Shown here one piece after another: positions 1-64,000 of a stretch of 64,000 nucleotides of DNA. Position numbers and translations under genes: made by a program. Position 1 is the stretch's first letter. Every line of letters starts with the position of its first letter. The notes under the pieces were generated by a model. It had not been told where the DNA came from. It saw nothing but the letters and a program-made list of their open reading frames with translations, and did not search any database. This stretch comes from Taeniopygia guttata. Its lineage: Eukaryota > Chordata > Aves > Passeriformes > Estrildidae. The DNA lies in contig NC_133059.1 of NCBI RefSeq assembly GCF_048771995.1, forward strand, positions 3,461,001 through 3,525,000. The letters are read 5' to 3'.

Positions 1-480
1 CCAAAATTCCCAAAATTCCTGAGGGAAAATTGGAATTTGGACAGGGCCAGGCCCAAAATTCCTGAGGGAAAAGTGGGAATGGGACAAGGCCAGGCCCAAA
101 ATTCCAAGATTTCTGAGGGGGAAAATTGGGATTTGGGGTAGGCCAAGGTGAAAATTCCCAAAATTCCTGAGGGAAAATTGGGAATTGGGAGGTTCCAGGC
201 CCAAAATTCCCAAAATTCCTGAGGGAAAAGTGGGAATTGGGCAGGGCCAGGCCCCAAAATTCCTGAGGGAAAAATGGGAATTGGGAGGTTCCAGGCCCAA
301 AATTCCCAAAATTCCTGAGGGAAAAGTGGGAATGGGACAAGGCCAGGCCCAAAATTCCAAGATTTTAGGGGAAAATTGGGAATTGAGACATGCCAGGCCC
401 AAAATTCCAAGGTTTTGGAGGGAAAATTGGGATTTGAGTTGTTCCAGGCCCAAAATTCCAAGATTTCTGAGGGAAAAAAA
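1..480. repeat. Minisatellite, about 55-65 bp unit
   Basis: Seven to eight imperfect units built around ccaggcccaaaattcc and ctgagggaaaattggg. Short open frames through it are by-products of the repeat. The array probably continues to the left of the window. Confidence 0.85.
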
Positions 481-1559
481 TTCTCCAACCCTGCCCTAAT
501 TCCAAGAAATTCACCCCAAAACTTCGGGAATTTGGGATTTTCCTTGTCCCAACCAATAAAATTCCTTTTTTGAATCCCTAAATCCAATTTTGGGATTTTT
601 TTTCCCCCATTTTTCCAAGCCCCAGGTGAACATTCCCAAATCCAGGCGTGGCCCAAAACTCCGGGAAAAAAAAAAATTCCTTCGGAACCGGAGAATCCAG
701 GAGTTAAAAACCCCCCAAAAATCCCCAAAAATCGGATTTTTCCACCCGGAAAATAATTCCTGGATTTAAAAAATGTGGAATTCCGGCCTAAATTACATAA
801 GGAAAAGGGGGGTGAGGGGGGAATTTTATCCAGGTGCCGGAAAATCCCGATTTTCCAGGAAAAAAAGATGGAGCAACCCTGGAATGCTTTTTTTAAAGGT
901 CAGAACACCTCCAAAATACCATTTTTTTCCTCAAAAAACCAGGATTTTCCTTAGGAAAAAAGCAATTTTTTCATGCTCTAACCACCAAATCTCCCCTCGG
1001 AGCTGCAGAATTCCCGGAAAAAATGAAAATATTGGAATTTTGGGCTGGTTTAGAGTGAAAAATGTGATTTTTTTAATCGGGAAAAATGAGTATTTTATCC
1101 TGATTTTTCTCGGGGGAAAAATTCCCGGTGGGAATCCTCAATGCCACCGCCTGGGGGGTCGGGATTTGGGGAAAAAAATGGGAATTTTGGGGGGATTTGA
1201 GGGGGTTTTTCCAAGAAAATTCCTCCGCCGCAACGCGTGAAGGACGCGCCCAGCTCGGGAAAAAAAAACCGGGAATTGCAGGAGCCGGGAGGGGGAAAAA
1301 CCGGGAAAAAAACCGGGAAAAATGAATTTAAAACCATCAAATGGGGGTTTTAACAGGGATTTTTGGGAAAATTTGGGGGAAATTTTGGGGAAAATTGGGG
1401 GAAAATGGGGGAAATGGCCGAGGGGGGGAGGGGAGGGAACACCTGGAGCGGGAACACCTGGAGCAGCCACACCTGGATGACACGGCGGATTTATGGGATG
1501 CTGCAAAAACCGGGAAAAGCCCAAAATGCCCAAAAATCAGCCCAAAAAATCCCTAAAAA
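481..1559. other. A/T- and C-run rich spacer, no gene recognised
   Basis: Homopolymer-rich sequence of the tttttgggaattcc type without recognisable coding similarity on either strand. At about 1,430-1,490 there is a short tandem of a gaacacctggagcagcc-like motif. If a minus-strand gene starts near 2.3 kb, this would lie in its first intron. Confidence 0.5.
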
Positions 1560-1975
1560 AATCCCTTAAAAATCCCAAAAAAATCCCAAAAAAAAAAACC
1601 TTTAAAATCCATTAAAAATCGCGGAAAAATCCCTAAAAAATCCATTAAAAATCCTTTTAAAAATCCCCCAAACCCCCAAAGGTTGGGGATCGTCCGACAA
1701 ACCCCAAAAATCCCAAAAAATCCTTAAAAATCCATTAAAAAATCCCGAAAAAAAACCCAAACCCCAAGGGTTGGAGATCACCCGGCAAACCCCAAAAATC
1801 CCTAAAAAATCCATTAAAAACCCCAAAAAATTCCCTAAAAAATCCCCAAACCCCAAGGACCGAGAATCGCCCGGCAAACCCCAAAAAACCCCAAAAAACC
1901 CCCAAAAATTCCCTAAAAAAAAATAAAAATTCCCAAAGCCCCAAGGGCCGGAGGCGCCCTCGGTTATTCCAGGCA
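1560..1975. repeat. Minisatellite, about 90 bp unit, 4 copies
   Basis: Four units share a core ccaaggnnggagatcnnccggcaaacccc, at about 1,680, 1,770, 1,855 and 1,940. The spacers are made of aaaaatccc blocks. I could not match the more conserved core to a known exon. Confidence 0.7.
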
Positions 1976-2039
1976 AGGGTTAAAAAAGCTGGAAAATTTG
2001 GGAGGGGTCGCCGCTGGAAAAGCGGGGTGGGGGATGCGT

Positions 2040-5240: not shown

Positions 5241-5272
<32 letters not shown>

Positions 5273-5590: not shown

Positions 5591-5644
5591 GCTGCCCATC
5601 CCCCCACGCTCACACCCCCGTTCTGCCGCTCTGGTGGGACCCCA

Positions 5645-14800: not shown

Positions 14801-17800
14801 CCCAAAAATGGGAATTCGGCCCAAAATTCCTGGAAAAAAGAAGGAGAAGGGGATTTCCCCCGAAAATTCCCCCCAAAAATCCCCTCCAAAAAATACAAAT
14901 GTCCCCCTAAAAGCGTCCCAAAAAATCCCAAATCCACAAAAATCCCCCAAAATCCACAAAAATCCATTAAAAAAAACCTTAAAATCCCTAAAAATCCCCC
15001 CCAAAAAACAAAATACTCCCCCCAAATTCCCCAAAAATCCCCCCAAACTTCCCCAAACCCCCCAAAATCCACAAAAAAATCCCCCTAACCCCCCAAATTC
15101 CCCAAAAATCCCCCCAAAATCCACAAAATTCCCTCAAAATCCACAAAAATCCCCCCAAAAAACAGAATTCTCCCCCAAAATCCACAAAAATCCCCAAATT
15201 TCCCCAAATCCCCCCCAAAAAACCAGAATTCTCCCCCAAAATCCACAAAAAAAACCCAAATCCAGAAAATCCCCCCAAAAACCAAAGTTCCCCCCCAAAT
15301 CCACAAAAATCCCCCCAAAATCCCCCCGAAATCCTCCAAAACCCCAAAATCCCCCCGAAATTCCCCCAAAACCCCCAAATTTTCCCCAAATCTCCCCAAA
15401 ATTCCCCCAAAACCCCCAAATTTTCCCCAAATCTCCCCAAAACCCCCCAAATCTCCCCAAATTTCCCCAAAATCCCCCAAATTTCCCCAAAATCCCCCCA
15501 AAATCCCAAAATCCTCCCCATAACCCCCCAAAATCCCCCCAAATTTCCTCAAATTTCCCCAAAATCTCCCCAAAATCCCCCAAATTTCCCCAAAATCTCC
15601 CCAAAACCCCCCAAAATCCCCCAAATTTCCCCAAAATCCCCCCAAATCTCCCCAAAATCCCAAAATCCCCCCAAAATCCTCCCAAAACCCCAAATTTCCC
15701 CCAAATCCCCCCAAATTTTCCCCAAATTTCCCCCAAAATCCCCCAAATTTCCCCCAAATCCCCCAAATTTCCCCAGAATCCCCCAAATTTCCCCAAAATC
15801 CCCCGAATCCCCCCAAAATCCCCTCACCTGTAGGGGCGGCCCCTCCCCCGCCCTCGGCCCCTCCGGCGGCGTTGGGGGTGGGGGAGGGGCGGGGGGGGGC
15901 CTGGGGGGGCCCCTCCCCCCTCGGGCTCCTCCGGGACCCCCGAGAACCTGCGGGGGAGGGGCAGAGGTGGGACCCCAAATTCACCCCCAAATTCACCCAA
16001 AAACCCAATTCACCTGAAAACCCCAAATTCACCCCCAAATTCACCCAAAAATTCATCGAAAAACCCAAAATTCACCCCAAAAATTCACCTGAAAACCCCA
16101 AAATTCACGCCAAAAATTCACCCCAAAAATTCACCTGAAAACCCAAAATTCACCCAAAAATTCACCCCAAAAATTCACCTGAAAACCCAAAATTCACCCA
16201 AAAATGTATCCCAAAATTCACCCCAAAATTTCTCCCAAAATTCACCTCAAAATTTACCTGAAAACCCAAAATTCACCCCAAAATTTATCCCAAAATTTAC
16301 CCAAAATCCCATTTTTGGTCTAAAAATCCCATTTTTTTGTCTAAACATCCCATTTTTTCCTCCAAAAGTCCCATTTTTTGGTCCAAAAATCCCATTTTTT
16401 GGCCTAAACCTCCATTTTTTCCCTCAATCCCTGATTTTTCTCCCTAAATCCCCATCTTTTTTCCCAAACACCCCAAAAATCCCTTTTTTTCTTCCAAAAA
16501 TCCCAATTTTTCTTCCAAAAATCCAATCTTTCCCCCCCGAAATCCAATTTTTTGTCTAAATATCCCATATTTCTTCCAAAAATCCAATCTTTTTCAGAAA
16601 AATCCCATTTTTCCCGTCCAAAAATCCCATTTTTTATCCAAAAATCCCATTTTTTTGTCTAAACATCCCATTTTTTCACCCCAAAATCCCGTTTTTTGGC
16701 CTAAAAATCCCATTTTTTTATCCAAATGGCCCATTTTTTGGTCCAAAAATCAAATTTTTTCTTCCAAAAATCCCATTTTTTAACCTAAAAACCCCATTTT
16801 TTGCCCTAAAAACCTCATTTTTTTTCCCCCAAACCCCATTTTTTTTCCCCAAACCCCCCAAAATCCCATTTTTTTGTCTAAAAACCCCATTTTTTTCCCC
16901 CGGACCCACATGCTGTCGGGTTTCTGGGCGTCCCACTCCCGTCTCCAGGCGCCGCGGGGGTCCCGGTGCCGCTGCAGCCGGGGGCTTTTCCCCAAAATCC
17001 CACTTTTTGTCTAAAAATCCCATTTTTTTTGTCTAAAAACCCCATTTTTTGTCTACATATCCCATTTTTTAATCCAAAAATCCCATTTTTAATCCAAAAA
17101 TCCCATTTTTTGCTCTAAAAACCCCCTTTTTTCGTCCAAAAATCCCATTTTTTTGTCTAAAAATCACATTTTCTGCCATAAAAACCCCATTTTTTTGCCT
17201 AAAAACCTCATTTTTTTTCCCCCAAACCCCAATTTTTTTCCCAAAATTCCATTTTTTTCCCCCAGACCCACATGCCGTCGGGTTTCTGGGCGTCCCACTC
17301 CCGTCTCCAGGCGCCGCGGGGGTCCCGGTGCCGCTGCAGCCGGGGGCTTTTCCCCAAAATCCCACTTTTTGTCTAAAAACCCCATTTTTTTGGTCTAAAA
17401 ACCCCATTTTTTGGTCTAAATATCCCATTTTCTGCCATAAAACCCCCATTTTTTGTCTCAATATCCCATATTTTAATCCAAAAATCCCATTTTTTTGGCC
17501 TAAAACCCCCATTTTTTCATCCAAAACCCCCATTTTTTTGTCTAAAAATCCCATTTTTTTTGTCTAAAAACCCCATTTTTTGTCTAAAAACCCAATTTCT
17601 TTGTCTAAAAATCCCATTTTTGACCTAAAACCCCAGTTTTTTGTCTAACATCCCATTTTTTAATCCAAAAATCCCATTTTTTTAATCCAAATGGCCCATT
17701 TTTTGGTCCAAAAATCCCATTTTTTGGCCTAAAAACCCCATTTTTTTTGTGTAAAAACCCCGTTTTTTGCCCTAAAAATCCCATTTTTTTTTCCCAAATC

Positions 17801-20800
17801 CCAATTTTTTTCCCCAAAATCCCATTTTTTCCCCCGGACCCACATGCCGTCGGGTTTCTGGGCGTCCCACTCCCGTCTCCAGGCGCCACGGGGGTTTTTC
17901 CCTAAAATCCCACTTTTTGTCTAAAAACCCCATTTTTTTTTCTCTAAAAACCCCATTTTTTGTCTACATATCCCATTTTTTAATCCAAAAATCCCATTTT
18001 TCATCCAAAAATCCAATTTTTTGGCCTAAAAACCCCATTTTTTCACCCAAAAATCCCATTTTTTCGTCCAAAAATCCCATTTTTTTGTCCAAAAATCCCA
18101 ATTTTTGGGCTAAAAACCCCATTTTTTTGGTGTAAAAACCCCATTTTTTTCCCCAAACCCCCCAAAATCCCATTTTTTGGTCCAAAAATCCCATTTTTTC
18201 TTCCAAAAATCCCATTTTTTGGCCTAGAAACCCCATTTTTTTTGTGTAAAAACCCCATTTTTTGCCCTAAAAACCCCATTTTTTTCCCCAAACCCCCCAA
18301 AATCCCATTTTTTTTCCCCAGACCCACATGCCGTCGGGTTTCTGTGCGTCCCACTCCCGTCTCCAGGCGCCGCGGGGGTCCCGGTGCCGCTGCAGCCGCT
18401 CGCGGTCGATCCGTTCCCGCTCCCGTTTCCAGCGCTCGTACTCCGCCCGCTGCCGCCCCGTCATCCACAGCGTCGGGTCCAGCGGCGGAGAGACCCCCGC
18501 CCGGGCAGCCCCCCGCCGCGCCTGGGGGGAAAAACGGGGAAATTGGGCCAAAAATGGGAAATGACAAAAAAACCCGAGAGAATCGCAAAAAACCCCGAGA
18601 GAATCGGGCCTAAAATGGGGAAAATGCAAAAAAAACCCCGAGAGAATCGCAAAAAACCCCGAGAGAATCAGGCCAAAAATGGGGAAAATACCCAAAAATT
18701 GACTCAGGAAAATCCCAAAGGCCCCGCCGGGTCTGGGGGAAAAAGGGGAAAATCGTCCCAAAAATGGGAAATCCCCAAAAACCCCCGAGAGAATCGGCCC
18801 AAAAATGGGGAAAATACAAAAAAACCCCCGAGAGAATCGGCCCAAAAATGGGGAAAATACAAAAAAAACCCCCGAGAGAATCGGCCCAAAAATGGGGAAA
18901 ATACAAAAAAAACCCCAAGAGAATCAGGCCAAAAATGGGGAAAATACAAAAAAAAACCCCCAAAAAACCCCGAGAGAATCGGGCCAAAAATGGGGAAAAT
19001 AAAAAAAAAAACCCCCGAGAGAATCACAAAAAAACCCCGAGAGAATCGGGCCAAAAATGGGGAAAATACAAAAAAAAAAACCTCAAAAAAATCCCAAAAA
19101 CCCCGAGAGAATCGGTCCAAAAATGGGAAATCCCAAAAAAACCCCGAGAGAATCGCAGAAAACCCCGAGAGAATTGGGCCTAAAATGGGGAAAATAGAAA
19201 AAAAAAACCCCAAAAAACCCCGAGAGAATCGGGCCAAAAATGGGGAAAATACAAAAAAAAACCCCCGAGAGAATCACAAAAAAACCCCGAGAGAATCGGC
19301 CCAAAAATAGGGAAAATATAAACAAAACCCCCCAAAAAATCCCAAAAACCCCAAAAAAATCCCAAAAACCCCGAGAGAATCGGGCTAAAAATGGGAAATC
19401 CCAAAAAAAACCCCGAGAGAATCGCAAAAAACCCCGAGAGAATCGGGCCAAAAATAGGGAAAATGCAAAAAAAACCCCAAAAAAACTCCCCGAAATAATC
19501 CCAAAAACCCCAAGAGAATTGGGCCAAAAATGGGGAAAATAGAAAAAAAAACCCAAAAAAAATCGCCCAAAAAAACCCTGAGAGAATGGGGCCAAAAATG
19601 GGGAAAATACAAAAAAAAACCCCAAAAAAATCTCATGAAAAATGGGGAAAATCTCCTCCAAAAAACCCCAGAAACAGAGAAAATCCCAAAAAAGCCCGAA
19701 AAATGGAGAAAATTCCCCCAAAAAATACCCCAAAATAGGGGAAAATAAAGGAGATTTTGGGAATTTTTTTGGGATTTTTTTGGGAGGATTTGTTTTAGGA
19801 CTTTTTGAGGGTGGTTTTGGATTTTTGGGGATTTTTTTTTGATTTTTTGGGGCTTTTTGTGTGTTTTTGGGGATTTTTTGGGGGGATTTTTTTGGCTTTT
19901 TTGAGGATTTTTGGAGGAAGTTTTTGGGATTTTTTGGGGGGAAGTTTTGGGGGTTTTTTTTGATTATTTGGGGGATTTTTTTGGGGATTCTTTTGGGTTT
20001 TTTTTTCTATTTCTGAGGGTTTTTGGATTTTTGGGAGATTTTTTGGGGGCTTTGTGTGTTTTTGGGGATTCTTTTGCTTTTTTTGGTGGGATTTTTTTGG
20101 CTTTTTGGGGGGATTTTTGGGGTATTTTTGGGGGATTTTTGAAGGAAGATTTTGGGATTTTTTGGTGGGATTTTTTGGTGGGATATTTTTTGGGGGTTTT
20201 TTTGGGGTGTTTTTGGGGTTTTTGGGGTACCCACCGCGGCCTTGCCGAAGTCGGGGCCCCCCCAGTTGCGCTGGTGCCGCCGGGGGCCCCCCCCGGGCCC
20301 CCCCCCGGGCTCGGGGCCGCAGCGCCGCGGATCGTCCAGAAAGTTCCGCACCGGGTTCCGCTCCGGGAGCCCCTCCTGCGGGAAACTGGGATCACTGGGA
20401 GCACTGGGAGGGAACTGGGGGGCACTGGGGGGCACTGGGAGGGGAGCTGGGGGCACTGGGATAAACTGGGAGGGGATCTGGGGGCACTGGGAGCGACTGG
20501 GAGGGGACTGGGATAAACTGGGGGGCACTGGGAGGGGACTGGGAGCAACTGGGAGGGGACTGGAATGAACTGGGATAAACTGGGAGGGGATTTGGGGGCA
20601 CTGGGGGGCACTGGGAGCGACTGGAGGGCACTGGGAGGGGATCTGGGGTTACTGGGAGGGACTGGGAGGGACTGGGATAAACTGGGAGGGGACTGGGATG
20701 GACTGGGATAAACTGGGAGGGGATCTGGGGGCACTGGGAGGGACTGGGATGGACTGGGAGGGGACTGGAATGAACTGGGATAAACTGGGAGGGGATCTGG

Positions 20801-23800
20801 GGGCACTGGGAGGGACTGGGATAAACTGGGGGGCATTGGGAGGGGACTGGGATAAACTGGGAGGGGATTTGGGGGAACTGGGAGGGACTGGGAGGGGATT
20901 TTGGGCACTGGGAGGGACTGGGATAAACTGGGAGGGACTGGGAGAGGACTGGGATAAACTGGGAGGCACTGGGGGGGACTGGGAGCGACTGGGAGGGGAC
21001 TGGAATGAACTGGGATAAACTGGGAGGGGATCTGGGGGCACTGGGAGGGACTGGGAGGGGATTTGGGGGCACTGGGAGGGACTGGGAGCAACTGGGAGGG
21101 ACTGGCAGGGGACTGGGATAAACTGGGAGGGGACTGGGATGGACTGGGAGGGGATTTGGGGTTACTGGGACAAACTGGGAGGGACTGGGGCGGAACTGGG
21201 ATGAACTGGGATAAACTGGGCTAACAGGTGTGTAGTGATCTATGCTGGTCTATACAGCTCTGAACTGGTTTGTACTGGTCTGTGCTGGTTTGTACTGGTC
21301 CGTGCTGGTTTGTACTGGTCCGTGCTGGTTTGTACTGGTCTGTGCTGGTCTATACTGGTCCGTACTGGTCTATACTGGTCCGTACTGGTTTATACTGGTC
21401 CGTACTGGTTTATACCGGTCCGTACTGGTCTATACTGGTCCGTACTGGTCTATACTGGTCCGTACTGGTGCCTCACCCTGCGGCCGCGTTCGTACTCGGC
21501 GATTTTCTCCATCTCCTCGTTCATCTGCTCGATGTTCTGCAGCCGCCGCTGCTCCCACTCCTGGGGACCCCAAAACCGCCCAAATTCACCCCAAAATCGG
21601 CCCAAATTCACCCCAAAATTCACCCCAAAATCAGCCCAAATTCACCCCAAAATTCACCCCAAAATCCGCCACAATTCACCCCAAAATCCGACAAAATTCA
21701 GTCAAAATTACGTCAAAATTCACCCCAAAATTCAGCCAAAATTCAGCCAAAATTCCCACAAAAATCCCCCCAAATCCCCAAATTTCCACAAAATTTCCCC
21801 AAATTCCCCCCAAATCCCCCAAATTTTCCCCAAATCCCACCAAAATCCCCCAAATATCTCCAAATATCCCCAAATTTCCACAAAAATCCCCCCAAATCCC
21901 CGAATTTCCACAAAAAATCCCCAAAATTCCCACAAGAATCCCCCCAAATAGCTCCAAATTTCCACAAAATCTCCCAAATTTCCCAAAATTTCCACAAAAA
22001 TCCCCCCAAATCCCCGAATTTCCACAAAATTTCCCCAAATCCCCCAAAAATCTCCCCAAAATGCCCAAATTTCCCCAAATCCCCCCAAATCTCACCTGGG
22101 ATTTTCGGTCGCCGCCGTCGCCCCCCCCCGCCCCTCCCCCCCTCCCGCGGGGTCGTGACCCCCCGGCCCCTCCCCCACCCCCCCGGGGGGGGCGCCCCGA
22201 AATCCGGGGGGGGCCCGGGGGCTTCTTCTCCTTGGGCTGGTCCTGTTGGGGGGCAGAGAGCCCAAAAAAACCCAAAATCAACCCAAAATCCACCCAAAAC
22301 AGTCCCCAAAATCCTCATTGAGAGACCTCGAAATAAACCCAAATAAACCTCAAATAAACCCCAAAATAAACCCAAAATTCACCCAAAATAATCCCCAAAA
22401 TCCTCATTGAGAGACTGCGAAATAAATCCAAATAAATCCCAAAATAAACCCCAAATAAACCCAAATAAACCCCAAAATAAACCCAAATAAACCCCCCAAA
22501 AAACTCCAAAACAATCCCCAAAATCCCCACTGAGAGACCTCGAAATAAACCCAAATAAACCCCAAAATAAAACTCAAATAAACCCAAATAAACCCCTAAA
22601 TCCACCCAAAACAATCCCCAAAATTCCCATTGAGAGCCCTCAAAATAAACCCAAATAAACCCCAAAATAAACCCAAATAATCCCCAAAATAAAACTCAAA
22701 TAAACCCCAATAAACCCAAATAAACCCCAAAATCCACCCAAAATAATCCCCAAAATCCCCATTGAGAGACCTCGAAATAAACCCAAATAAACCCCAAAAT
22801 AAAACTCAAATAAACCCCAAATAAACCCAAAATAAACCTCAAATAAACCCAAATAAACCCCAAAATCCACCCAAAATAATCCCCAAAATCCCCATTGAGA
22901 GACCTCAAAATAAACCCAAATAAACCCCAAAATAAAACTCAAATAAACCCCAAAATCCACCCAAAATAATCCCCAAAACCCCACTGAGAGACCGCGAAAT
23001 AAACCCAAATAAAGCCCAAAATAAACCCCAAATAAACCCAAAATAAACCCAAAATTCACCCAAAATAATCCCCAAAATCCCCATTGAGAGACTGCGAAAT
23101 AAACCCAAATAAAGCCCAAAATAAACCCCAAATAAACCCAAATAAACCCAAAATTCACCCAAAATAATCCCCAAAATCCCCATTGAGAGCCCTCAAAATA
23201 AACCCAAATAAACCCCAAAATAAAAGTCAAATAAACCCAAATAAACCCAAAATTCACCCAAAATAATCCCCAAAATCCCCACTGAGAGACCTCGAAATAA
23301 ACCCAAATAAACCCCAAAATAAACCTCAAAATAATCCCAAATAAACCCCAAAATAAACCTCGAAATAAACCAAATAATTAAAGCTCAAAATAAACCCAAA
23401 TAAACCCCAAAATAAAGCTCAACATAAACCCAAATAAACCCCAAAATAAATCCCAAATAAATCCAAAAATCCCCAAAATCCCCCCAAAGAATCCCCAAAT
23501 CCCCCCAAAAAAACCCCAAATCCCTCGAGATCCCCCAAAAATCCCCAAATCCCCCCCAAAAAATCCCCAAATCTCCCCCAATTCCCCACTTAGACACCCC
23601 AAAAAAAACCCCAAAATCCCCCCAAAAACCCCAAAAAGCCCCAAATAGCCCCAAATCTCACCCCGGGGGGTCCCGGGGGGTCTCTGTCCCCCCCCCGCCG
23701 GGGGGGCCGGGCGGTCACAGCCCCCCCCTCGCGCTCCGCCCGCCGCCGATCCTCCTCGATCTCCTGGAATTTGGGGGAAATTTGGGAATTTTGGGAATTT

Positions 23801-42300: not shown

Positions 42301-45300
42301 AATGAGATTTTTCTCCAAAAAATTAGATGTATTTTCCCCTGAAATGAGATTTTTTTCCCCAAAAATAAGATTTTGTTTTCCCCCCAGAAATGAGATTTTT
42401 TTTCCCACAAACTAGATTTTTTTTTTTCCCAAAACTGAGACTTTTTTCCCCACAATGACATTTTTTCCCAAAACACGCTATTTTTTGGGGAAACCGCCCG
42501 GGAATTCACCTTGGAGCAGGAAATAGTCGGGGGCCGTTTTCCTCAGCGCCGCCGCCGCCTCCTCCCCGCGCCACTGCACGGCCAGGGCCTCGCGCAGCGG
42601 GCAGAACTGCAGCCTCTGTTTGGGGCAAAAAACGGAGATTTTGGGTGTTTGGGGGGAAAAACAGCAATTCCCACAGCGGGCAGAACTGCAGCCTCTGTTT
42701 GGGGCAAAAAACCCGGATTTTGGGTGTCTGGGGGGGAAAACAGCAATTCCCACAGCGGGCAGAACTGCAGCCTCTGTTTGGGGCAAAAAACGGAGATTTT
42801 GGGGCAAAAAACCCAGATTTTGGGTGTTTGGGGGGAAAAACAGCAATTCCCACAGCGGGCAGAACTGCAGCCTCTGTTTGGGGCAAAAAATGGAGATTTT
42901 GGGTGTGGAGAAAGAATGAAAACTCCCAGTTCCAGGGAACAGGAATTGGGAATTCTCCCAATTTCAGGGTTTAGGGATTTGGGAATTCTCCCAATTTCGG
43001 GGAACAGGAATTGGGAATTCTCCCAGTTTTAGGGAAACAGGAATAGGGAATTCTCCCAATTTTGGGGAACAGGAATTGGGAATTCTCAGGAACAAAGCCC
43101 AGCCCCATTCCGGGGCTCTGGAATCCCAAAAATGGATCCCCGGGAATTCCCACGGGATTGGGACCAGCAGCTGCTCCTGGTGGCATCTGGGGACATTCCC
43201 AGGGACATTCCCGGGATTTTGGGGTCCATCCCAGGATTTTGGGTTCCATCTCAGGATTTTGGGGTCCATCCCGGGACTTCCGGGTCCATCCCGGGATTTT
43301 GGGGTCTATCCCAGGATTTTGGGGCCCATCCCAGGATTTTGGGGTTCTGGGGTCATGACCCACTGACCTTTTTGACCATGGTGGTCTCGGCCGGCTCCAG
43401 CCGGGCCCGTTTGGGGTTTGATTTTGGGGTTTATCCCAGGATTTTGGGGCCCATCCCGGGATTTTGGGGCCCATCCCGGGATTTTGGGGTTTGGGGTCAC
43501 GACCCACTGACCTTTTTGACCATGGTGGTCTCGGGCGGCTCCAGCCGGGCCCGTTTGGGGTTTGATTTTGGGGTTTATCCCAGGATTTTGGGGTCTATCC
43601 CGGGATTTTGGGGTTTATCCCAGGATTTTGGGATTTATCCCAGGATTTTGGGGTCCATCCCAGGATTTTGGGGCCCATCCCAGGATTTTGGGGCTCTGGG
43701 GTCACGACCCACTGACCTTTTTGACCATGGTGGTCTCGGCCGGCTCCAGCCGGGCCCGTTTGGCCTCGGGTCCATCCTCCACCCCCGCGCTCACCTTGGC
43801 CACCTTGGGCTTCTCCCTGAGGACGGAAACGCCCGGAATTCCAGCAGGAGCGCCCCAAAATCCCGGGATTTCGGGGGTTCCGCCCCAAAACTCACTCCAC
43901 GAACTCGTGCTCGCCCAGGTCAGCGAACATGTAGCCGTGGTAGCCGAAGACGTCGCCGGTGAAGAACTTGACGCCGTTTTTGTGGCAGATCTGGTTGATC
44001 CTCACCATGGACTCCCGGGAGCAGCAGGTGAGGCACACCTGGCGGGGAAATTTGGGGAATCAGCCCCGGATTTTGGGGGGTTTTATGGGGGAAAAGCGGA
44101 ATGGGGCAGGGGGAAGAGTGGGATGGGGTTGGGTGGTTTGCTTTTTTTGGGATAGAAGGGAATTGTACCCCAAAATGGGGAGATTTTGCCCCAAAACAGG
44201 GGATTCCACCCTAAAATGGAATGATTATACCTCAAAATGGAAAGATTTTACCCCAAAATGGGGTGATTCCACCCTAAAATGGAATGATTCTACCTCAAAA
44301 TGGGGAGTTTTACCCCAAAATGGCGGATTCCACCATAAAATGGGGTGATTCTATCCCAAAATGGGGGGTTCTATCCCAGAATGGGATCATTCTACCTCAA
44401 AATGGGGAGATTTTACCCCAAAATGGGGGGATTCCACCTCAAAAGGGGATAAACCCAGCCCAGAATGGATAAACCCCAAACCCCCCCAAACCCGTGCCAA
44501 ACCCCCCCAAACCTGTGCCAATCCCCCCCAAACCCGTGCCAAACCCCCCAAACCTGTGCCAAACCCCCCCAAACCCGTGACAACTCCCTCAAACCCGTGA
44601 CAATCCCCTCAAACCTGTAACAATTCTATCCCAAACCTCCCCAAACCTGTGCCAAACCCCCCCAAACCTGTGCCAAACCCCTCAAACCTGTACCAATTCT
44701 ATCCCAAACTCCCCCAAACCCATGCCAAATCCCCCCAAACCCGTGCCAAATCCCCCCCAAACCTGTGCCAATCCCCTCAAACCCGTGCCAAACCCCCCCA
44801 AACCCGTGCCAATGCCCCCCAAACCCGTTCCAAACCCCCCCAAACCCGTGCCAAGCCCCCCCAAACCCATGCCAAACCCCTCCAAACCTGTGCCAAACCC
44901 CCCCAAACCCATGCCAAACCCCCCCAAACCTGTGCCAATCCCCCCCAAACCCATGCCAATCCCCCCCAAACCTGTGCCAAACCCCCCCAAACCTGTGACA
45001 ACTCCCTCAAACCTGTAACAATTCTATCCAATCCCCCCCAAACCTGTGGCAATCCCCCCAAACCCGTGCCAATCCCCCCCAAACCCGTGCCAAATCCCCC
45101 CAAACCCATGCCAAACCCCCCCAAACCCGTGCCAAACCCCCCCAACACCCCGAAATTGGGGCAGCCCCGCGGTACCGCGTCGAACTGTGTGAAGAACTCG
45201 TGGGGTTTGCTGTCCACGCTCTCGGCGTCGGCCTTCACCTCCACCATGGGGTTGAGGCTCTGCGCCCGCTCCAGCGACGCCTCGGCCCGGTTCCGGCCCA

Positions 45301-48300
45301 CGGAGCCCGCCGGGATCAGGAACTGCGCCCGGCTGTCCTCGGCACACACCTGGGAACGGCAATTCCCGGATTTCGGGGGGCGGGAATGGGAATTCCCGGA
45401 TTTTGGGGATCAGGAACTGCGCCCGGCTGTCCTCGGCACACACCTGGGAACGGCAATTCCCGGATTTCGGGGGGTGGGAACGGGAATTCCCAGATTTTGG
45501 GGGGCGGGAACGGGAATTCCCACATTTTGGGCATCAGGAACTGCGCCCGGCTGTCCTCGGCACACACCTGGGAACGGCAATTCCCGGATTTCGGGGGGTG
45601 GGAATGGGAATTCCCAGATTTTGGGGATCAGGAACTGCGCCTGGCTGTCCTCGGGACACACCTGGGAATGGGAATTCCCGGATTTTGGGGGGCAGGAATG
45701 GGAATTCCTGGATTTTGGGGATCAGGAACTGTGCCCGGCTGTCCTCGGCACACACCTGGGAATGGGAATTCCCGGATTTCGGGGGGCGGGAATGGGAATT
45801 CCCGGATTTTGGGGATCAGGAACTGCGCCCGGCTGTCCTCGGGACACACCTGGGAATGGGAATTCCTGGATTTTGGGGGGCAGGAACGGGAATTCCCAGA
45901 TTTCGGGGGGCGGGAATGGGAATTCCCGGATTTTGGGGATCAGGAACTGCGCCCGGCTGTCCTCGGCACACACCTGGGAACGGGAATTCCTGGATTTTGG
46001 GGGGTGGGAACGGGAATTCCCAGATTTTGGGGAGCAGGAACTGCGCCCGGCTGTCCTCGGCACACACCTGGGAATGGGAATTCCTGGATTTTGGGGGGCG
46101 GGAACGGGAATTCCCAGATTTTGGGGGGTGGGAACGGCAATTCCCGGATTTTGGGGGGCAGGAACGGGAATTCTCGGATTTTGGGGAGGAGGAATGGGAA
46201 TTCCCAGATTTTGAGGATCAGGAACTGCGCCCGGCTGTCCTCGGCACACACCTGGGAACGGGAATTCCCAGATTTCGGGGAGCTGGAATGGGAATTCCCA
46301 CATTTTGGGGAGCAGGAACGGGAATTCACAGATTTCGGGGATCAGGAACTGCGCCCGGCTGTCCTCGGCACACACCTGGGAATGGGAATTCCTGGATTTC
46401 GGGGGGCAGGAACGGGAATTCCCACATTTCAGGCAGCAGGAATGGGAATTCCCGGATTTCGGGGGGTGGGAACGGCAATTCCCGGATTTTGGGGAGCAGG
46501 AACTGCGCCCGGCTGTCCTCGGCACACACCTGGGAACGGCAATTCCCGGATTTCGGGGGGCAGGAACGGGAATTCCCGGATTTTGGGGATCAGGAATGGG
46601 AATTCCCGGATTTTGGGGATCAGGAATGGGAATTCCCGGATTTTGGGGATCAGGAACTGCGCCCGGCTGTCCTCGGCACACACCTGGGAACGGCAATTCC
46701 CGGATTTCGGGGGGCGGGAACGGGAATTCCCAGATTTTGGGGGTGTTTGTGAGGGGGGAAAACCCAGGTGTGGACAGGATGAAATTCCCAGATTTTGGGA
46801 GAGAATCGCAGGGATGGAGGCGATGAAATTCCCAGATTTTGGGGCTGTTCTGAAGGGAAAACTCCGGGGATGGAAATTATGAAATTCCCAGATTTTGGGA
46901 GAGAAACACAGGGATGAAGGTGATGAAATTCCAAGATTCTGGGGCTCCTCCAGGTGTGCCCAGGTGTGTGCCCAGGTGTGTCCCCTCCCCCCAGGTATGC
47001 CCAGGTGTGTGCCCAGGTGTGTCCCCAGGTATGCCCAGGTGCGTGCCCAGGTGTGTCCCCAGGTGTGCCCAGGTGTGCCCAGGTGTGTCCCCAGGTGTGT
47101 GCCCCTCACCTGTTGGTGGTCCAGCAGGGTGAGGCCCCTGACCCCGGCCAGGATGAGGCTGTGCCCAGGTGTGGGTGTGTTCCCCCCACCCAGGTGCGTG
47201 CCCAGGTGTGTCCAGGTGTGCCCAGGTGTGTCCAGGTGTGTCCCCAGGTATTCCCAGGTGTGCCCAGGTGTGTCCCCAGCTGTGCCCCCAGGTGTGTCCC
47301 CAGGTGTGCCCCTCACCTGTTGGTGGTCCAGCAGGGTGAGGCCCCTGACCCCGGCCAGGATGAGGCTGTGCCCAGGTGTGGGTGTGTCCCCTCCCCCCAG
47401 GTGCGTGCCCAGGTGTGTCCAGGTGTGTCCCCAGGTGTGCCCCCAGGTGCCCCCCTCACCTGTTGGTGGTCCAGCAGGGTGAGGCCCCTGACCCCGGCCA
47501 GGATGAGGTTTTTGGCCACCTCGGCGCCGAGCCCGCGCAGCCCCACCAGCAGCACCCGCGACGCCCGCAGCCTGTGGGGCACCGGGAAAAACGGGAATTA
47601 TCCTCGGGATACGCCCCGAGAACGGCAACGGGAACCCAAAAGCGGGGAGAGGCACCCCCAGAGCCCTACAGGGACCCCCAGAGCCCTACAGGGACCTCCC
47701 AGACCCCTACAGGGACCCCCAGACCCCTACAGGGACCCCCAGACCCCTACAGGGACCCCCAGACCCCTATAGGGACCTCCCAGACCGCCACAGGGACCTC
47801 CAGACCCCCATAGGGACCCCCCAGACCTCTACAGGGACCCCCAGAGCCCTACAGGGACCCCCAGACCCCCATAGAAACCTCCCAGACCCCTACAGGGACC
47901 CCCAGACCCCTACAGGGACCCCCAGACCCCCATAGGAACTTCCCAGACCCCTACAAGGACCCCCAGACCCCCATAGGAACCTCCCAGACCCCTACAGGGA
48001 CCCCCAGAGCCCTATAGGGACCCCCCAGACCCCTACAGGGACCCCCAGACCCCTATAGGGACCCCCAGACCCCCACTGGGACCTCCCAGACCCCTACAAG
48101 GACCCCCCAGACCCCCATAGGAATCTCCCAGAGCCCTACAGGGACCCCCAGATCCCCATAGAAACCTCCCAGACCCCCATAGGAACTTCCCAGACCCCTA
48201 CAGGGACCCCCAGAACTCTATAAGGACCCCCAGACCCCCATAGGAACTTCCCAGACCCCTACAGGGACCCCCAGACCCCTATAGGGACCCCCAGACCCCC

Positions 48301-58300: not shown

Positions 58301-61300
58301 CCAGGTGTGCCCAGGTGTGCCCAGGTATATCCCAGGTGTGCCCAGGTGTGCCCAAGTGTGCCCAGCTGTGCCCAGGTATATCCCAGGTGTATCCCAGGTG
58401 TGCCCCAGCTGTGCCCAGGTGTATCCTAGCTGTGCCCAGGTGTATCCCATGTATGCCCAGCTGTGCCCAGGTGTGTCCCAAGTGTGCCCCAGGTGTGCCC
58501 AGCTGTGCCCCAATTGTGCCCAGGTGTCCCCAGGTGTGCCCAGGTGTGTCCCAAGTGTGCCCCAGTTGTGCCCAAGTGTGCCCCAGGTGTCCCCAGGTGT
58601 GCCCAGGTTCCCCTCGCTGGTAAAGCACAAATTGGGAATTATTCCCAAAAAAATCCCCATCGTTTCTCCCCAGAAAAATCCCATTTTTCCCAAAAAAATC
58701 CTATTTCCCCCCATAAATTCCCATTTCTTCACCATTTCCCCCAAAAAATCCCATTTTCCCCAAAAAAATCCCATTTTTCCCCATAAAATCCCATTTTTTT
58801 CACCATTTTCCCCAGAAAGAATCCCATTTTCCCCAAAAAAATCCCATTTTCCCCAGAAAAATCCTATTTCCCCCATAAATTCCCATTTTTTCACCATTTT
58901 CCCCAGAAAAATCCTATTTTTCCCAAAAAAATCCCATTTTTTCCATAAAATCCCATTTTTTCACCATTTTTTCCCCAGCAAGTCCCATTTTCCCCCCCAA
59001 ATCCCATAAAATTCCCGTTTTTTTCCCGGAAGAACAGGGAGCCTCAGGAGGAGCCACAATTCCCATTTCCCTCTCCAAACCCCATTTATATTTCACCAGA
59101 AAAATCCCATTTTTTCCCCAAAAAATCACAGAAAAATCCCATTTTTTCACCAAAAAATCCCATTTTTTCACCGAAAAATCACATTTTTTCTGTATTTTTT
59201 CCCCAAAAATCCTGGAAATTCCTGTTTTTTTGCAGAGATTACAGGGAGCCTCAGGAGGATCCACAATTCCCATTTCCCTCTCCAAACCCCATTGGTTTTC
59301 CCCAGAAAAATCCCATTTTTTCACCATTTTTTCGCCGAAAACTCCCATTTTTTCATCAAAAAATCCCATTTTTTCCCTATTTTTTCCCCAAAATCCCATA
59401 AAATTCCCAATTTTTTTCCAGGAAGAACAGGGAGCCTCAGGAGGATCCACAATTCCCATTTCCCTCTCCAAACCCCATTGGTTTTCCCCAGAAAAATCCC
59501 ATTTTTTCACCGAAAAATCCCATTTCTTCCGTATTTTTTCCCCAAAAACCCAGGAAATTCCCGTTTTTTTCCAGGAAGAACAGGGAGCCTCAGGAGGAGC
59601 CACAATTCCCATTTCCCTCTCCAAACCCCATTATATTTCCCCAGAAAAATCCCATTTTTTCCCCAAAAAATCCCAGAAAAATCCCATTTTTTCACCTAAA
59701 ATTCCCATTTTTTCACCGAAAAATCTCATTTTTTCCATATTTTTTCCCCAAAAACCCGGGAAATTCCTGGTTTTTTCCAGGAAGAACAGGGAGCCTCAGG
59801 AGGATCCACAATTCCCATTTCCCTCTCCAAACCCCATTACATTTCCCCAGAAAAATCCCATTTATTCACCATTTTTTCGACGAAAAATCCCATTTTTTCA
59901 CAGAAAAATCCCATTTTTCCCCCAAAATCACAGAAAAATCCCAATTTTTTTCCAGGAAGAACAGGGAACCTCAGGAGGATCCACAATTCCCATTTCCCTC
60001 TCCAAACCCCATTGGTTTTCCCCAGAAAAATCCCATTTTTTCACCGTTTTTTCGCCGAAAAATCCCATTTTTCCCCAAAAAAATCCCATTCTTTCACCGA
60101 AAAATCCCATTTTTTCCATATCTTTTCCCCAAAAACCCTGGAAATTCCTGTTTTTCTGTAGGAAGAACAGGGAGCCTCAGGAGGATCCACAATTCCCATT
60201 TCCCTCTCCAAACCCCATTGGTTTTCCCCAGAAAAATCCCATTTTTTCACCGAAAAATCCCATTTTTTCACCATTTTTTCACCGAAAAATCCCATTTTTT
60301 CACGGAAAATTCCCATTTTTTCACCGTTTTTTCACATAAATTCCCTTTTCCCCCCGCAGGGAGGACGGGGAGCTGGAGGAGGGCGAGCTGGAGGACGATG
60401 GCGCCGAGGAGGCGGCTCCGAGCTCCCGGTCCCGCTCACTCTCCCAGCAGGACAAACCCCAGAAAAATCCCATTTTCCCCCAAAATCCCATAAAATTCCC
60501 TTTTTTTTCCAGGAAGAACAGGGAGCCTCAGGAGGATCCACAATTCCCATTTCCCTCTCCAAACCCCATTACATTTCCCCAGAAAAATCCCATTTTTTCC
60601 CCAAAAAATCCCAGAAAAATCCCATTTTTTCGCCGAAAAATCCAATTTTTTCCGTATTTTTTCCCCAAAATCCCATAAAATTCCCAATTTTTTTCCAGGA
60701 AGAACAGGGAGCCTCAGGAGGAGCCACAATTCCCATTTCCCTCTCCAAACCCCGTTACATTTCCCCAGAAAAATCCCATTTTTTCACCGTTTTTTCGCCG
60801 AAAAATCCCATTTTTTCATCAAAAAATCCCATTTTTTCCGTATTTTTTCCCCAAAAATCCTGGAAATTCCTGTTTTTTTGCAGGGATTACAGGGAGCCTC
60901 AGGTTGATCCACAATTCCCATTTCCATCTCCAAACCCCATTACATTTCCCCAGAAAAATCCCATTTTTTCACCGAAAAATCCCATTTTTTCACCGTTTTT
61001 TCACCGAAAAATCCCATTTTTTCACGGAAAATTCCCGTTTTTTCACGGAAAATTCCCTTTTCCCCCCGCAGGGAGGACGGGGAGCTGGAGGAGGGCGAGC
61101 TGGAGGACGACGGCGCCGAGGAGGCGGCTCCGAGCTCCCGGTCCCGCTCGCGGCGCCGCAGCGGATCCCCCCAGGACCGAGCCCACCGGCGGCTGAAGCG
61201 CAAACGCCGCAAGGACCGGGACCGGGACCGGGACCGGGACCGGGACCGGGACCGGGACAGGGACAAGAGGAGGGCCAAGAAAAGGAGGAAATCCAAGCAC

Positions 61301-62868
61301 AGGGTGAGAATTTCCGGGAATTTTCCTGAATTTTCGGGGGGAAAAACGGCTTTTTCCCGGGGTTTTTTCCCATCAGAAACGGCTGAAATCTGGTTTTTTT
61401 GCGATTTAACGATGGGGTTTTTGTGTAATTTGTTCAGGTTGCAGGAGAAATCCTTTTTTTGGGGGTTTAAATAAGGGATTTCCTGAGAATTTCCATCAAA
61501 TTCCAAGAAAAATCATTTTTTTTTTGTGCCTCAAGGCACGGATTATCCTAAAATACTTCCCAGTTTCCAGGAAAATCCATGTTTTGTGTCTCAAGTCCTG
61601 AATTTTCTAAAATTCCCCCTAGTTTCCAGGAAAAATCCGTATTTTGTGTCTGAAGTCCTGAATTTTCTAAAATTACCCCCTAGTTTCCAGGAAAAATCCG
61701 TATTTTGTGTCTCAAGTCCTGAATTTTCTAAAATTCCCCCCAATTTCCAGGAAAAATCCATATTTTATCTCTCAAGTCCTGAATTTCCTGAAAATTCCCC
61801 TCAAATCCCAAGAAAAATCCTTTTATTTTGTGCCTCAAGTCACGAATTTCCTAAAATTCCCCTCAAGTTCCATGAAAAATCTATTTTTTGATCTCTTTAT
61901 TCCAAAGTTCTATAAGAATTCCCCTCAATTTCCAGGAAAAATCCATATTTTGTGTCTAAAGTCCTGAATTTCCTGAAAATTCCCCCCAATTTCCATGAAA
62001 AATCCATTTTTTTGTGTCTCAAGTCACAAATTTCCTGAAAATTCCTCCCAAATTCCAGGAAAAATCAATTTTTTGGCATCTTAATCCCAAATTTCCATAA
62101 GAATTTCCCTCCAGTTCCAGGAAAGATTGATATTTTTTTTTTGTGTCCCAACCCTCAAATTTCCTAAAAATTTTCCTCAAATTCCAGGAAAAACCCATTT
62201 TTTAGCATTTAAATCCCAGAATCAGGAATTCCAGAGGCTGGGAAGGGCTCAGGGCTGATTTTTTCCCAGGAAAATTGGGAATTTGGGGATCTGGGAAGGG
62301 CTCAGGGCTGGAAAATTGGGAATTCTGGGACTTGGGAAGGGCTTACCGCTGACTTTCTCGGGAAAATTGGGAATTCTGGGATTTGGGGAGGGCTCAGGGC
62401 TGGAAAAATGGGAATTTGGGGATTTGGGGAGGGCTCAGGGCTGGAAAATTGGGAATTTGGGGATTTGGGGAGGGCTCAGGGCTGGAAAATTGGGAATTTG
62501 GGGATTTGGGGAGGGCTCAGGGCTGGAAAATTGGGAATTTGGGGGTTTGGGGAGGGCTCAGGGCTGGAAAATTGGGAATTCTGGGATTTGGGGAGGGCTC
62601 AGGGCTGGAAAATTGGGGATTTGGGGATTTGGGGAGGGCTCAGGGCTGACTTTTCCCAGGAAAAATGGGAATTTGGGGATTTGGGGAGGGCTCAGGGCTG
62701 GAAAATTGGGAATTTGGGGATTTGGGAAGGGCTCAGGACTGACTTTTCCGGGTTTTCCAGAGGCACGCCTCGTCCAGCGAGGAATTTTCGGATCTCAGCG
62801 ACGACTCCGATTACAGCCCCGGAGAGAAGGGACACCGGAAATACCGGGAATACAGCCCGGCCTATCCC
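52319..62868 (+). CDS. ZC3H4: Zinc finger CCCH domain-containing protein 4, 5' part
   Basis: ZC3H4 is a nuclear CCCH protein that acts with WDR82 to end extragenic transcription. Three coding exons are seen: 52,319-52,473 (51 aa, Pro/Ala-rich, ending HHHGPDE; donor gtccag is weak but in phase), 61,072-61,303 and 62,761-62,868. Joined they read [65 protein letters not shown] and [16 protein letters not shown], nearly the same as human ZC3H4. Exon 2 has a hexamer-encoded RD run (61,214-61,262). The CCCH fingers lie in later exons beyond the window. The next exon's start is probably represented by the repeats after 63,240. It is divergent from SAE1, as in human. Intron 1 (8.6 kb) is almost all minisatellite. 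Confidence 0.93.
52600..54480. repeat. ZC3H4: Purine-rich array in ZC3H4 intron 1
   Basis: About 1.9 kb of 20-60 bp units: gaggaggaggagggtgagga, agggcctgagggggatttga. The minus strand is polypyrimidine, giving Pro/Ser/Leu-rich open frames up to 800 codons that are not genes. Confidence 0.93.
54500..55500. repeat. T/G-rich imperfect repeats in ZC3H4 intron 1
   Basis: Units around gggattaaaatcctcatttt and gggtttaacccctttttt at 54,750-55,250. No coding signal. Confidence 0.7.
55530..56165. repeat. ttaggggaaaaaag array in ZC3H4 intron 1
   Basis: Units of about 50-60 bp: gaatttnnggagattttnagg, gggggaaaaaggtaaat. Confidence 0.8.
56166..56535. other. Unique part of ZC3H4 intron 1
   Basis: Run-rich DNA with no recognised feature. 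Confidence 0.5.
56536..58618. repeat. ZC3H4: gtgtgcccaggtgtgcccc array in ZC3H4 intron 1
   Basis: About 2.1 kb of 10-13 bp units: cccaggtgtg, ccccaggtgtg, ccagctgtg, caggtgtatcc. Each unit holds an E-box (cacctg on the other strand) and a donor-like CAG/gtgtg on the sense strand. Open frames on both strands are repeat shadows. Confidence 0.95.
58640..60960 (+). repeat. ZC3H4: Array with ZC3H4 exon 2 5' edge copies
   Basis: aaaaatcccattttttcacc units carry about ten diverged copies of a segment starting ccag then gaagaacagggagcctcagg (59,024 to 60,880, spacing 150-210 bp), which aligns with the exon 2 start (cag then ggaggacggggagctggagg). One much closer copy at 60,352-60,445 matches about the first 80 bp of exon 2 with its acceptor, then departs at gtcccgctc. 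Confidence 0.85.
61540..62210. repeat. ZC3H4: Array in ZC3H4 intron 2 (first part)
   Basis: About ten units of 60-65 bp: cccagtttccaggaaaaatc, ttttgtgtctcaagtcctga, attttctaaaattcccc. Confidence 0.9.
62230..62750. repeat. ZC3H4: Array in ZC3H4 intron 2 (second part)
   Basis: About eleven units of 42-60 bp: gggctcagggctggaaaatt, gggaatttggggatttgg. It ends at the exon 3 acceptor. Confidence 0.92.
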
Positions 62869-63235
62869 GTGAGTTTACTGGGAATACTGGGAGTAAAAAC
62901 TGGGAATGAAAACTGGGAATACAGCCCGGCCTATCCCGTGAGTTTACTGGGAATACTGGGAGTAAAAACTGGGAATGAAAACTGGGAATACAGCCCGGCC
63001 TATCCCGTGAGTTTACTGGGAATACTGGGAGTAAAAACTGGGAATGAAAACTGGGAATGGTCACTGGGAAATCCTGGGAATACAGCCCAGCGTATCCCGT
63101 GAGTTTACTGGGAATACTGGGAGTGAAAACTGGGAATGAAAACTGGGAATACAGCCCGGCCTATTCCGTGAGTTTTACTGGGAATACTGGGAGTAAAAAC
63201 TGGGAATTACTGGGAGTAAAAACTGGGAATTTTTG
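62869..63235 (+). repeat. ZC3H4: Array of ZC3H4 exon 3 3' edge copies
   Basis: Four further copies (about 62,921, 62,991, 63,082 and 63,151) of the last 20 bp of exon 3 with its donor (aatacagcccggcctatccc then gtgagtttactgggaa), unit about 70 bp, filled with actgggaatgaaaactggga. Confidence 0.94.
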
Positions 63236-63239
63236 GGAA

Positions 63240-64000
63240 TTCCAGATCCCAACCTGTCCTATCCCATTCCCAGTGCCACCAGTACTCCCAGTTACCCTGC
63301 AATTTTTGGGAATTTTTGGGAATTTTTGTGAATTTTTGGGAATTCCGGATCCCGACCTGCCCCATCCCATTCCCAGTGCCACCAGTACTCCCAGTTACCC
63401 TGGAATTTTTGGGAATTTTTGAGAATTTTTGGGAATTTTTGTGAATTTTTGGGAATTTTTGAGAATTTTTGGGAATTTTTGGGAATTTTTGGGAATTCCT
63501 CATCCCAACCTCTCCCATCCCATTCCCAGTGCCACCAGTACTCCCAGTTGCCCTGGAATTTTGGGAATTTTTGAGAATTTTTGGGAATTTTTTGGAATTC
63601 CTCATCTCGACCTGTCCCCTCCCATTCCCAGTGCCACCAGTACTCCCAGTTGCCCCTCAAGCCCCATCCCAAGGGAATAAAAACTGGGAATTTTTGGGAA
63701 TTTTTGGGAATTCCGGATCCCGACCTGTCCCATCCCATTCCCAGTGCCACCAGTACCCCCAGTTGTCCTGGAATTTTGGGAATTTTTGGGAATTTTTGGG
63801 AATTCCGGATCCCGACCTCTCCAATCCCGTTCCCAGTGCCACCAGTACTCCCAGTTGCCCCTCAAGCCCCATCCCAAGGGAATAAAAACTGGGAATTTTT
63901 GGGGATTCTGGATCCTGACCTGTCCCCTCCCGTTCCCAGTGCCACCAGTACTCCCAGTTACCCTGGAATTTTGGGAATTTTAGGGAATTTTAGGGAATTC
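63240..64000 (+). repeat. ZC3H4: Array of probable ZC3H4 exon 4 5' edge copies
   Basis: Seven units of about 90-150 bp contain an acceptor-like cattcccag followed by tgccaccagtactcccagtt, at about 63,270, 63,380, 63,520, 63,628, 63,740, 63,828 and 63,938. In frame after exon 3 this reads CHQYSQLP, similar to human SHQQYPPS, the expected next residues. Two copies extend further (cccctcaagccccatcccaa). The functional exon probably lies just beyond the window. Confidence 0.75.

What the first reader, a model, noticed from the sequence alone, without database searches (positions are those of the whole stretch)
1..64000. Minisatellites repeatedly built from exon edges with their splice sites
At eleven or more exon-intron borders in three unrelated genes, 20-80 bp of the exon edge plus its acceptor or donor has been copied 1-15 times into the adjoining intron or 3'UTR as part of a tandem array. 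It affects 5' edges (SAE1 exons 3, 6, 7; CCDC9 exon 3; ZC3H4 exons 2 and probably 4) and 3' edges (SAE1 exons 2, 5, 7, 9; CCDC9 exon 7; ZC3H4 exon 3). The arrays spread only on the intronic or UTR side. This suggests one local mechanism, such as slippage or template switching anchored at junctions, and creates many decoy splice sites per intron.
Basis: seen in the sequence. Interest (0 to 1): 0.88.

Follow-up and report, generated by a model that had tools for sequence, protein, structure and literature searches.

The report
Exon edges caught in bird minisatellites
On a small, repeat-filled chromosome that is probably a bird's, the tandem repeats that fill the introns have often swallowed and multiplied the edges of neighbouring exons together with intact-looking splice signals; this effect was described in chickens in 2026 as 'exon stuttering', and here the repeats cover exon borders less often than they cover the rest of the non-coding DNA.

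Summary
Confirmed as an observation. In the window plus 200 kb of the same contig I mapped 127 exons of six genes (SAE1, CCDC9, ZC3H4, CKM, ERCC2, part of RYR1). After removing one false edge, 68 of 248 edges (65 at the published 42.1-bit cut) have 1-15 copies; 50 of 120 introns are affected; 275 of 275 copies lie on the intron/UTR side; the antisense control has none at >=42.1 bits.

Sidedness is geometry: a tandem duplication spanning an exon edge must leave the extra copy outside the exon. Local repeats cover 83% of random non-coding DNA here but 33% of junctions, falling to zero 78 bp inside exons, with no peak at the junction. Blind tandem duplication with about 1 in 4 junction-spanning events retained reproduces the intron-side profile, not the fall inside exons. 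A stop codon and an AT-AC donor are copied too.

Hron et al. 2026 (PMC12954441) describe this in chicken as 'exon stuttering'. This is a new, dense, quantified member.

The parts
45312..46683 (-). SAE1 exon 3 (45176-45349) 5' edge, 35-38 bp plus acceptor, copied 11 times upstream into intron 2; spacing 94-184 bp
47110..47508 (-). SAE1 exon 2 (47460-47571) 3' edge, 49 bp plus donor, 2 copies downstream in intron 2
43368..43763 (-). SAE1 exon 5 (43717-43816) 3' edge, 47 bp plus donor, 2 copies in intron 5
42595..42873 (-). SAE1 exon 6 (42510-42615) 5' edge, 21 bp plus acceptor, 3 copies in intron 5
40845..41672 (-). SAE1 exon 7 (40760-40904) 5' edge, up to 60 bp plus acceptor, 5 copies in intron 6 (4 of the 5 alignments cover exon bases 25-60 only)
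40720..40774 (-). SAE1 exon 7 3' edge: 15-bp exon piece plus donor repeated 40 bp downstream (weak, below the cut)
   Evidence: sequence shown
37863..39420 (-). SAE1 exon 9 (39395-39490) end: last 22-26 bp including the stop codon, 14 copies in the 3'UTR (10 of them at >=42.1 bits); no splice site involved
23713..24465 (-). CCDC9 exon 3 (23662-23763) 5' edge, 42-51 bp plus acceptor, 4 copies in intron 2
16906..18398 (-). CCDC9 exon 7 (18324-18521) 3' edge, 56-75 bp plus donor, 3 copies in intron 7
60360..61149 (+). ZC3H4 exon 2 (61072-61303) 5' edge, 78 bp plus acceptor, 1 copy 712 bp upstream
62846..63167 (+). ZC3H4 exon 3 (62761-62868) 3' edge, 20-23 bp plus donor, 3 copies in intron 3
63274..63983 (+). 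six of eight copies of the ZC3H4 exon 4 5' edge; exon 4 itself is 64318-64525 in extended coordinates, just outside the window

Best explanation
Exon stuttering by blind tandem duplication plus purifying selection. On this small chromosome non-coding DNA is repeatedly duplicated in tandem (copy spacing at exon edges mostly 75-210 bp) wherever the event happens to fall. If a unit spans an exon edge, the copy joined to the rest of the exon stays the functional edge and the other copy is left in the intron or UTR as a decoy with an intact-looking splice site, so copies always look as if they spread outwards. Most such events are removed by selection (about a quarter retained in the simulation, ever fewer as more exon is included). 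The retained decoys are probably ignored because exon definition prefers the nearby, complete exon. Shown: copies, sidedness, depletion at junctions, intact splice dinucleotides, conserved exon edges, almost no local repeats in six sampled stretches of other contigs. Inferred: the mutational process (slippage or unequal exchange), selection as the cause of the depletion, non-use of the decoys.
For: 68 of 248 edges carry copies and 275 of 275 copies are on the outer side (69 of 249 and 280 of 280 before removing one false edge); repeat-cover profile through the junction without a peak; simulation of blind duplication with 25% acceptance gives .94 .84 .73 .60 .44 .31 at -240, -150, -60, -24, -6, 0 against observed .90 .83 .70 .63 .43 .33; exon breakpoints without special composition (68 breakpoints); a stop codon and an AT-AC donor copied like GT-AG edges; no clear frame preference of the first offset (25/22/21); innermost decoys, if used, would cause a frameshift in 38 of 58 and an in-frame stop in 13 of 58 (SAE1, CKM, ERCC2, RYR1), so they are presumably little used; exon edges with copies are about as conserved as others (59 edges 0.809 vs 133 edges 0.831 amino-acid identity to the human proteins, p=0.20), consistent with the exon being the source; local repeat cover 0-0.009 in six 10-kb pieces of other contigs against 0.75-0.84 in five pieces of C36.
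Against: The simulation does not reproduce the fall inside exons: it predicts about 0.3 cover up to +72, observed 0.20 at +36, 0.09 at +54, 0 at +78; a length-dependent penalty or an intron bias of the process has to be added. The simulation was run for eight parameter settings of my choice; only the setting s=0.25 with 100 steps fits that well (60 steps give 0.24 at the junction for s=0.25 and 0.46 for s=0.5). Exon constraint could hide old copies and so lower the measured cover. The profile rests on fewer edges deeper in (153 at +54, 67 at +78). Junction microhomology could not be read: in all 12 single-copy edges the match at the shift was shorter than the unit. The ZC3H4 last exon shows that arrays can also lie inside coding sequence.
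Confidence: 0.8

Rival explanations
1. Junction-anchored copying: slippage or template switching is triggered at exon-intron borders, for instance by transcription, R-loops or nucleosome position, and preferentially copies edges.
For: First offsets have a main class near 120-210 bp (43 of 68), a nucleosome-like scale; 27% of edges are affected.
Against: Junctions are covered less (0.33) than random non-coding DNA (0.83), with no local maximum; exon breakpoints are scattered without a motif; a stop codon is copied as well; the 135-210 bp class is also seen among random non-coding probes (71 of 322 probes that have a strong local copy).
Confidence: 0.07
2. The duplication process itself avoids exons (it needs pre-existing repeat homology, which mostly introns have), and selection plays little part; exons are caught only when the end of a unit overshoots.
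For: The exon part is shorter than the intron part in nearly all arrays (p/u <= 0.51 in 66 of 68); cover falls with depth into the exon.
Against: Not tested directly: exon and intron breakpoints could not be compared for microhomology. 12 of 68 edges have a single copy, i.e. events not obviously seeded by an older edge array; and a coding array does occur in the last ZC3H4 exon.
Confidence: 0.2
3. Assembly artefact: arrays made or inflated by mis-assembly of long reads.
For: The contig is repeat-dense; no reads could be examined here.
Against: Copies differ from each other by substitutions and sit at irregular offsets (SAE1 e3); the pattern recurs in all six genes; six stretches of other contigs show almost none; Hron et al. 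report that the tandem structure of PHF8 introns was verified in raw nanopore reads of chicken (PMC12954441, passage read).
Confidence: 0.03

Closest known systems
Exon stuttering / sequence stuttering of avian dot-chromosome genes (Hron et al. 2026, Genome Biol Evol evag038, PMC12954441; read: abstract, the Discussion, part 1 of section 8, and passages mainly of sections 7 and 16; supplements with the gene list not seen)
   Same: Tandem copies of exon edges with the adjacent donor or acceptor in the neighbouring intron; dot-chromosome genes; coding exon intact; exon part 20-187 bp, median 36, there against 18-78 bp, median 41, here; 1-44 copies there, 1-15 here.
   Different: Described in chicken, with 190 of 5,572 dot introns (3.4%) positive; here 49 of 120 introns (41%) of six genes at the same bit cut, but with another annotation and without their manual filter, so the rates are not strictly comparable. 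The paper says that local repeat expansions were also seen in some other birds. Its main text does not mention SAE1, CCDC9, ZC3H4 or UTRs. Added here: cover profile across junctions, stop-codon and AT-AC edges, decoy integrity and frame. Not testable here: length polymorphism.
[quoted passage not shown] only the reference entry seen; the paper is not held; detail recalled: human IFI6-16)
   Same: A tandem array that spans an exon-intron border and offers many donors.
   Different: One human gene with a 12-bp unit (recalled); here many edges, longer units, acceptors as well.
[quoted passage not shown] potato RdRp case, PMC4974935, passages read)
   Same: A duplication crossing an intron-exon border duplicates the splice signals.
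   Different: There a new intron arises; here an existing intron grows and no new intron is inferred.

Membership tests
Exon stuttering (Hron et al. [quoted passage not shown]
   65 of 248 edges; antisense control 0 at that cut
Exon stuttering (Hron et al. 2026) | Copied part lies at the exon border (published: over 90% within 1 base) | tested here: met
   263 of 275 copies reach within 8 bp of the edge; 236 of 275 (86%) within 1 base, slightly under the published figure for the latter
Exon stuttering (Hron et al. 2026) | Introns heavily covered by tandem repeats | tested here: met
   mean local direct-repeat cover 0.83 in 120 random non-coding pieces
Exon stuttering (Hron et al. 2026) | Concentrated on dot chromosomes | tested here: inconclusive
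   C36 is 4.45 Mb and local repeat cover is 0-0.009 in six 10-kb pieces of other contigs; exon copies on other contigs were not searched (genome search unavailable)
Exon stuttering (Hron et al. 2026) | Intron length polymorphism among individuals | not testable with these tools
   one assembly only
Exon stuttering (Hron et al. 2026) | Host is a bird | tested here: inconclusive
   1.14 Gb in 41 contigs, contigs C1 of 115.9 and C2 of 72.1 Mb fit a songbird chr1/chr1A by recall; no species name was given
Tandem-duplication intron gain | A new spliced intron bounded by duplicated signals | tested here: not met
   the models follow the human proteins in order and the copies lie in the gaps between mapped exons; no RNA data

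The most novel reading that the evidence does not exclude
The arrays record a length-dependent filter set by splicing: a decoy exon edge is tolerated only while it carries little exon (retention of about a quarter at the junction, falling to none beyond about 78 nt), because longer pieces would begin to be recognised as exons. If so, dot chromosomes are a natural saturation experiment on exon definition, with about 225 intact-looking acceptor and donor decoys in 264 kb that the spliceosome must ignore, and a songbird dot chromosome stutters far more than chicken's.
Probability: 0.3. Interest if true: 0.65.

Novelty: new member of a known kind. Interest (0 to 1): 0.42.

Why it matters
It shows the recently described exon stuttering in a genome that is probably not chicken's, at very high density, and turns 'is it anchored at splice junctions?' into a measured answer for this stretch: no, junctions are under-covered. 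It also lists a couple of hundred intact-looking decoy splice sites at known distances from the real ones, which long-read RNA could use to test how exon definition picks the right copy.

Tried and rejected
Junction anchoring: rejected by the cover profile, the scattered breakpoints and the non-splice edges. Frame selection on decoys: no clear bias (first offsets 25/22/21). Corruption of exon ends by the arrays: not seen. Sequence signature at exon breakpoints: none. Junction microhomology: could not be read. Inserted or shuffled exon pieces rather than tandem duplication: 12 of 275 copies do not reach within 8 bp of an edge; all but one of the arrays concerned also have copies that do, the exception being the CKM exon at 103848-103971 with a single interior match. 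Recalled proteins AP2S1, NAPA, CALM3, SNRPD2, KDELR1 and RPS19 gave no match at E 0.01 in the 264 kb; ERCC1 gave one weak, low-complexity match inside the window; the MARK and KLC pieces gave none. One search was void (wrong database name; its zeros mean nothing) and was redone. Rows dropped before counting: six RYR1 model pieces of low confidence; the 5' edges of CCDC9 15828 and of ZC3H4 80284 and 81172; the 3' edges of ZC3H4 76427 and CCDC9 13421; ZC3H4 and CCDC9 model exons without clear homology; copies overlapping another mapped exon; copies more than 2.6 kb away. The counted edges include coding starts and ends of SAE1 and CKM, which are not splice junctions; the 120 introns are gaps between consecutive mapped exons and may in CCDC9 and ZC3H4 hide unmapped exons. 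The p = 162 entry comes from one weak interior match in an RYR1 exon whose edge copies reach 73 bp.

Full report
What the window is. It lies at 3,461,001-3,525,000 of contig C36 (4,447,500 bp) of a 1.14-Gb assembly in 41 contigs. SAE1 and CCDC9 are on the minus strand; the 5' part of ZC3H4 is on the plus strand, head to head with SAE1. The translated SAE1 model matches SUMO-activating enzyme subunit 1 in the PDB over its whole length (1y8q_A, E 1e-176). Fetching the next 200 kb added the rest of ZC3H4, all coding exons of CKM (best PDB match 8ci4_A, creatine kinase M-type, E 9.5e-245), ERCC2 and 75 model exons of RYR1, of which 69 were kept. Contigs C1 and C2 of 115.9 and 72.1 Mb fit a songbird with chromosomes 1 and 1A, and the CKM protein differs from the chicken one as I recall it; both are recall, not tests.

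The observation. With the published search style (blastn-short, exon against neighbourhood), 69 of 249 testable exon edges have at least one copy at >=36 bits. 59 exons and 50 of 120 introns are affected (49 of 120 at 42.1 bits). 275 of 275 copies are on the outer side of the edge they resemble; 263 of 275 reach within 8 bp of it, 236 of 275 within 1 base. Controls: the antisense strand gives 8 matches at >=36 bits (none above 36.2) and none at >=42.1; locally shuffled sequence reaches 24.3 bits, or 36.2 bits against the whole shuffled window.

Why sidedness is no evidence for a special mechanism. If a segment spanning an exon edge is duplicated in tandem, one copy stays joined to the rest of the exon; the other must lie outside it. 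Whichever is older, the second is seen 'in the intron'. This holds for acceptors, donors and the end of the coding sequence.

Is the edge special? Around 249 edges, cover by local direct repeats is 0.90 at -240, 0.83 at -150, 0.70 at -60, 0.63 at -24, 0.33 at the junction, 0.27 at +18, 0.20 at +36, 0.09 at +54 (153 edges) and 0 at +78 (67 edges); 120 random non-coding pieces have a mean of 0.83. Junctions are thus under-represented in arrays, the fall is steepest in the last 24 intron bases, and the curve has no bump at the junction. Exon breakpoints are spread over 18-78 bp and look like random exon sequence (longest run 2.81 vs 2.78, GC 0.71 vs 0.70; 68 breakpoints, one of them the false edge). 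Edges that are not GT-AG junctions behave the same: the SAE1 stop codon with 14 copies in the 3'UTR, and a ZC3H4 donor reading ATATCCTG (AT-AC, U12-like by recall) with three copies. Copy spacing is 75-210 bp in 227 of 275 cases; the 135-210 bp class also occurs among random non-coding probes (71 of 322 with a strong local copy; 78 of 400 probes had none).

A model. I simulated blind tandem duplication and deletion around an exon that must stay intact, accepting junction-spanning duplications with probability s, in eight settings. With s = 0.25 and 100 steps the intron-side profile is .94 .84 .73 .60 .44 .31 at -240, -150, -60, -24, -6, 0, against .90 .83 .70 .63 .43 .33 observed. With s = 1 the junction would be covered 0.68 (60 steps) or 0.77 (100 steps). 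The simulation fails inside the exon, where it stays near 0.3 while the data fall to zero by +78. So either selection grows with the length of exon copied or the process has an intron bias; I cannot separate these here. A rough Poisson reading of the same cover values gives 0.23 at the junction relative to -150.

Decoys. Acceptor copies keep AG in 134 of 135 cases where the true site is AG; donor copies keep GT in 93 of 98 (91 of 93 without the false edge). Of 25 donor arrays, 6 have a decoy with a higher simple donor score than the true site, two of them clearly (ERCC2 133362 and 120774). Using the innermost decoy would shift the frame in 38 of 58 cases and add a stop in 13; 7 would stay open. 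First offsets show no clear frame bias (25/22/21). Exon ends with copies are about as conserved as ends without (59 edges 0.809, 133 edges 0.831 identity to the human proteins, p = 0.20). The simplest inference is that the decoys are hardly used and that the exon-joined copy is chosen by exon definition; there is no RNA evidence here.

Where it happens. Five 10-kb pieces of C36 have a local repeat cover of 0.75-0.84; six 10-kb pieces of other contigs have 0 to 0.009. A paralogue control (RYR2/RYR3) could not be run, because the genome search stayed unavailable.

What is known. Hron et al. 2026 (PMC12954441; abstract, Discussion, part 1 of section 8 and passages mainly of sections 7 and 16 read) describe 'sequence stuttering' in chicken: 115 genes and 236 introns with copied exon edges, 190 of them on dot chromosomes, including adjacent splice donors and acceptors, with strong length polymorphism; they mention similar expansions in some other birds, and leave the mechanism open (replication or repair under stress, or meiotic events). 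The present case meets the sequence features of that kind. It adds a genome that is probably not chicken's, a much higher share of introns (not strictly comparable with their 3.4%), copied edges without a GT-AG site, and the measured depletion at junctions. None of the seven paper searches made (open-licence PMC papers only) listed a paper on junction depletion or decoy use in dot chromosomes, but none was aimed at exactly that.

Noticed in passing
80286-82307 (window-based coordinates, beyond the window, L010): The last ZC3H4 exon is open throughout and holds an in-frame coding tandem array (units reading like DPRLSRNREPSPDPGPW, more than ten copies), so stuttering can also lie inside coding sequence.
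   Followed up: partly
71576-71687 and 72715 (window-based coordinates, beyond the window, L009): A ZC3H4 intron looks U12-type AT-AC: donor ATATCCTG, branch-like TTCCTTGAC, acceptor CAC; the following exon reads in frame. Its donor edge is itself copied three times.
   Followed up: partly
12906-13513, minus strand: The last mapped CCDC9 exon runs in frame into a tandem array (repeats reading like DQSKPVTPSS), so an array may have become coding at the C-terminus.
   Followed up: no
4787-7655: Long GAG-rich and GAC/GAT/ATG-rich arrays (period 3 to about 200), unlike the arrays at the exon edges.
   Followed up: no
7683-8849, minus strand: A 389-codon open frame of non-trivial composition over a CCAGGTGTCGTT array; possibly part of another gene or a chance frame.
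   Followed up: no
18324 and 48932, minus strand: CCDC9 exon 7 and SAE1 exon 1 have poor donor sites (GTCTGG, GTCTGT); in CCDC9 exon 7 the decoys score equally poorly.
   Followed up: partly
whole 264 kb: Spacings of exon-edge copies fall into two classes, about 75-105 and 120-210 bp; the latter is a nucleosome- or Okazaki-like scale. Cause unknown.
   Followed up: partly
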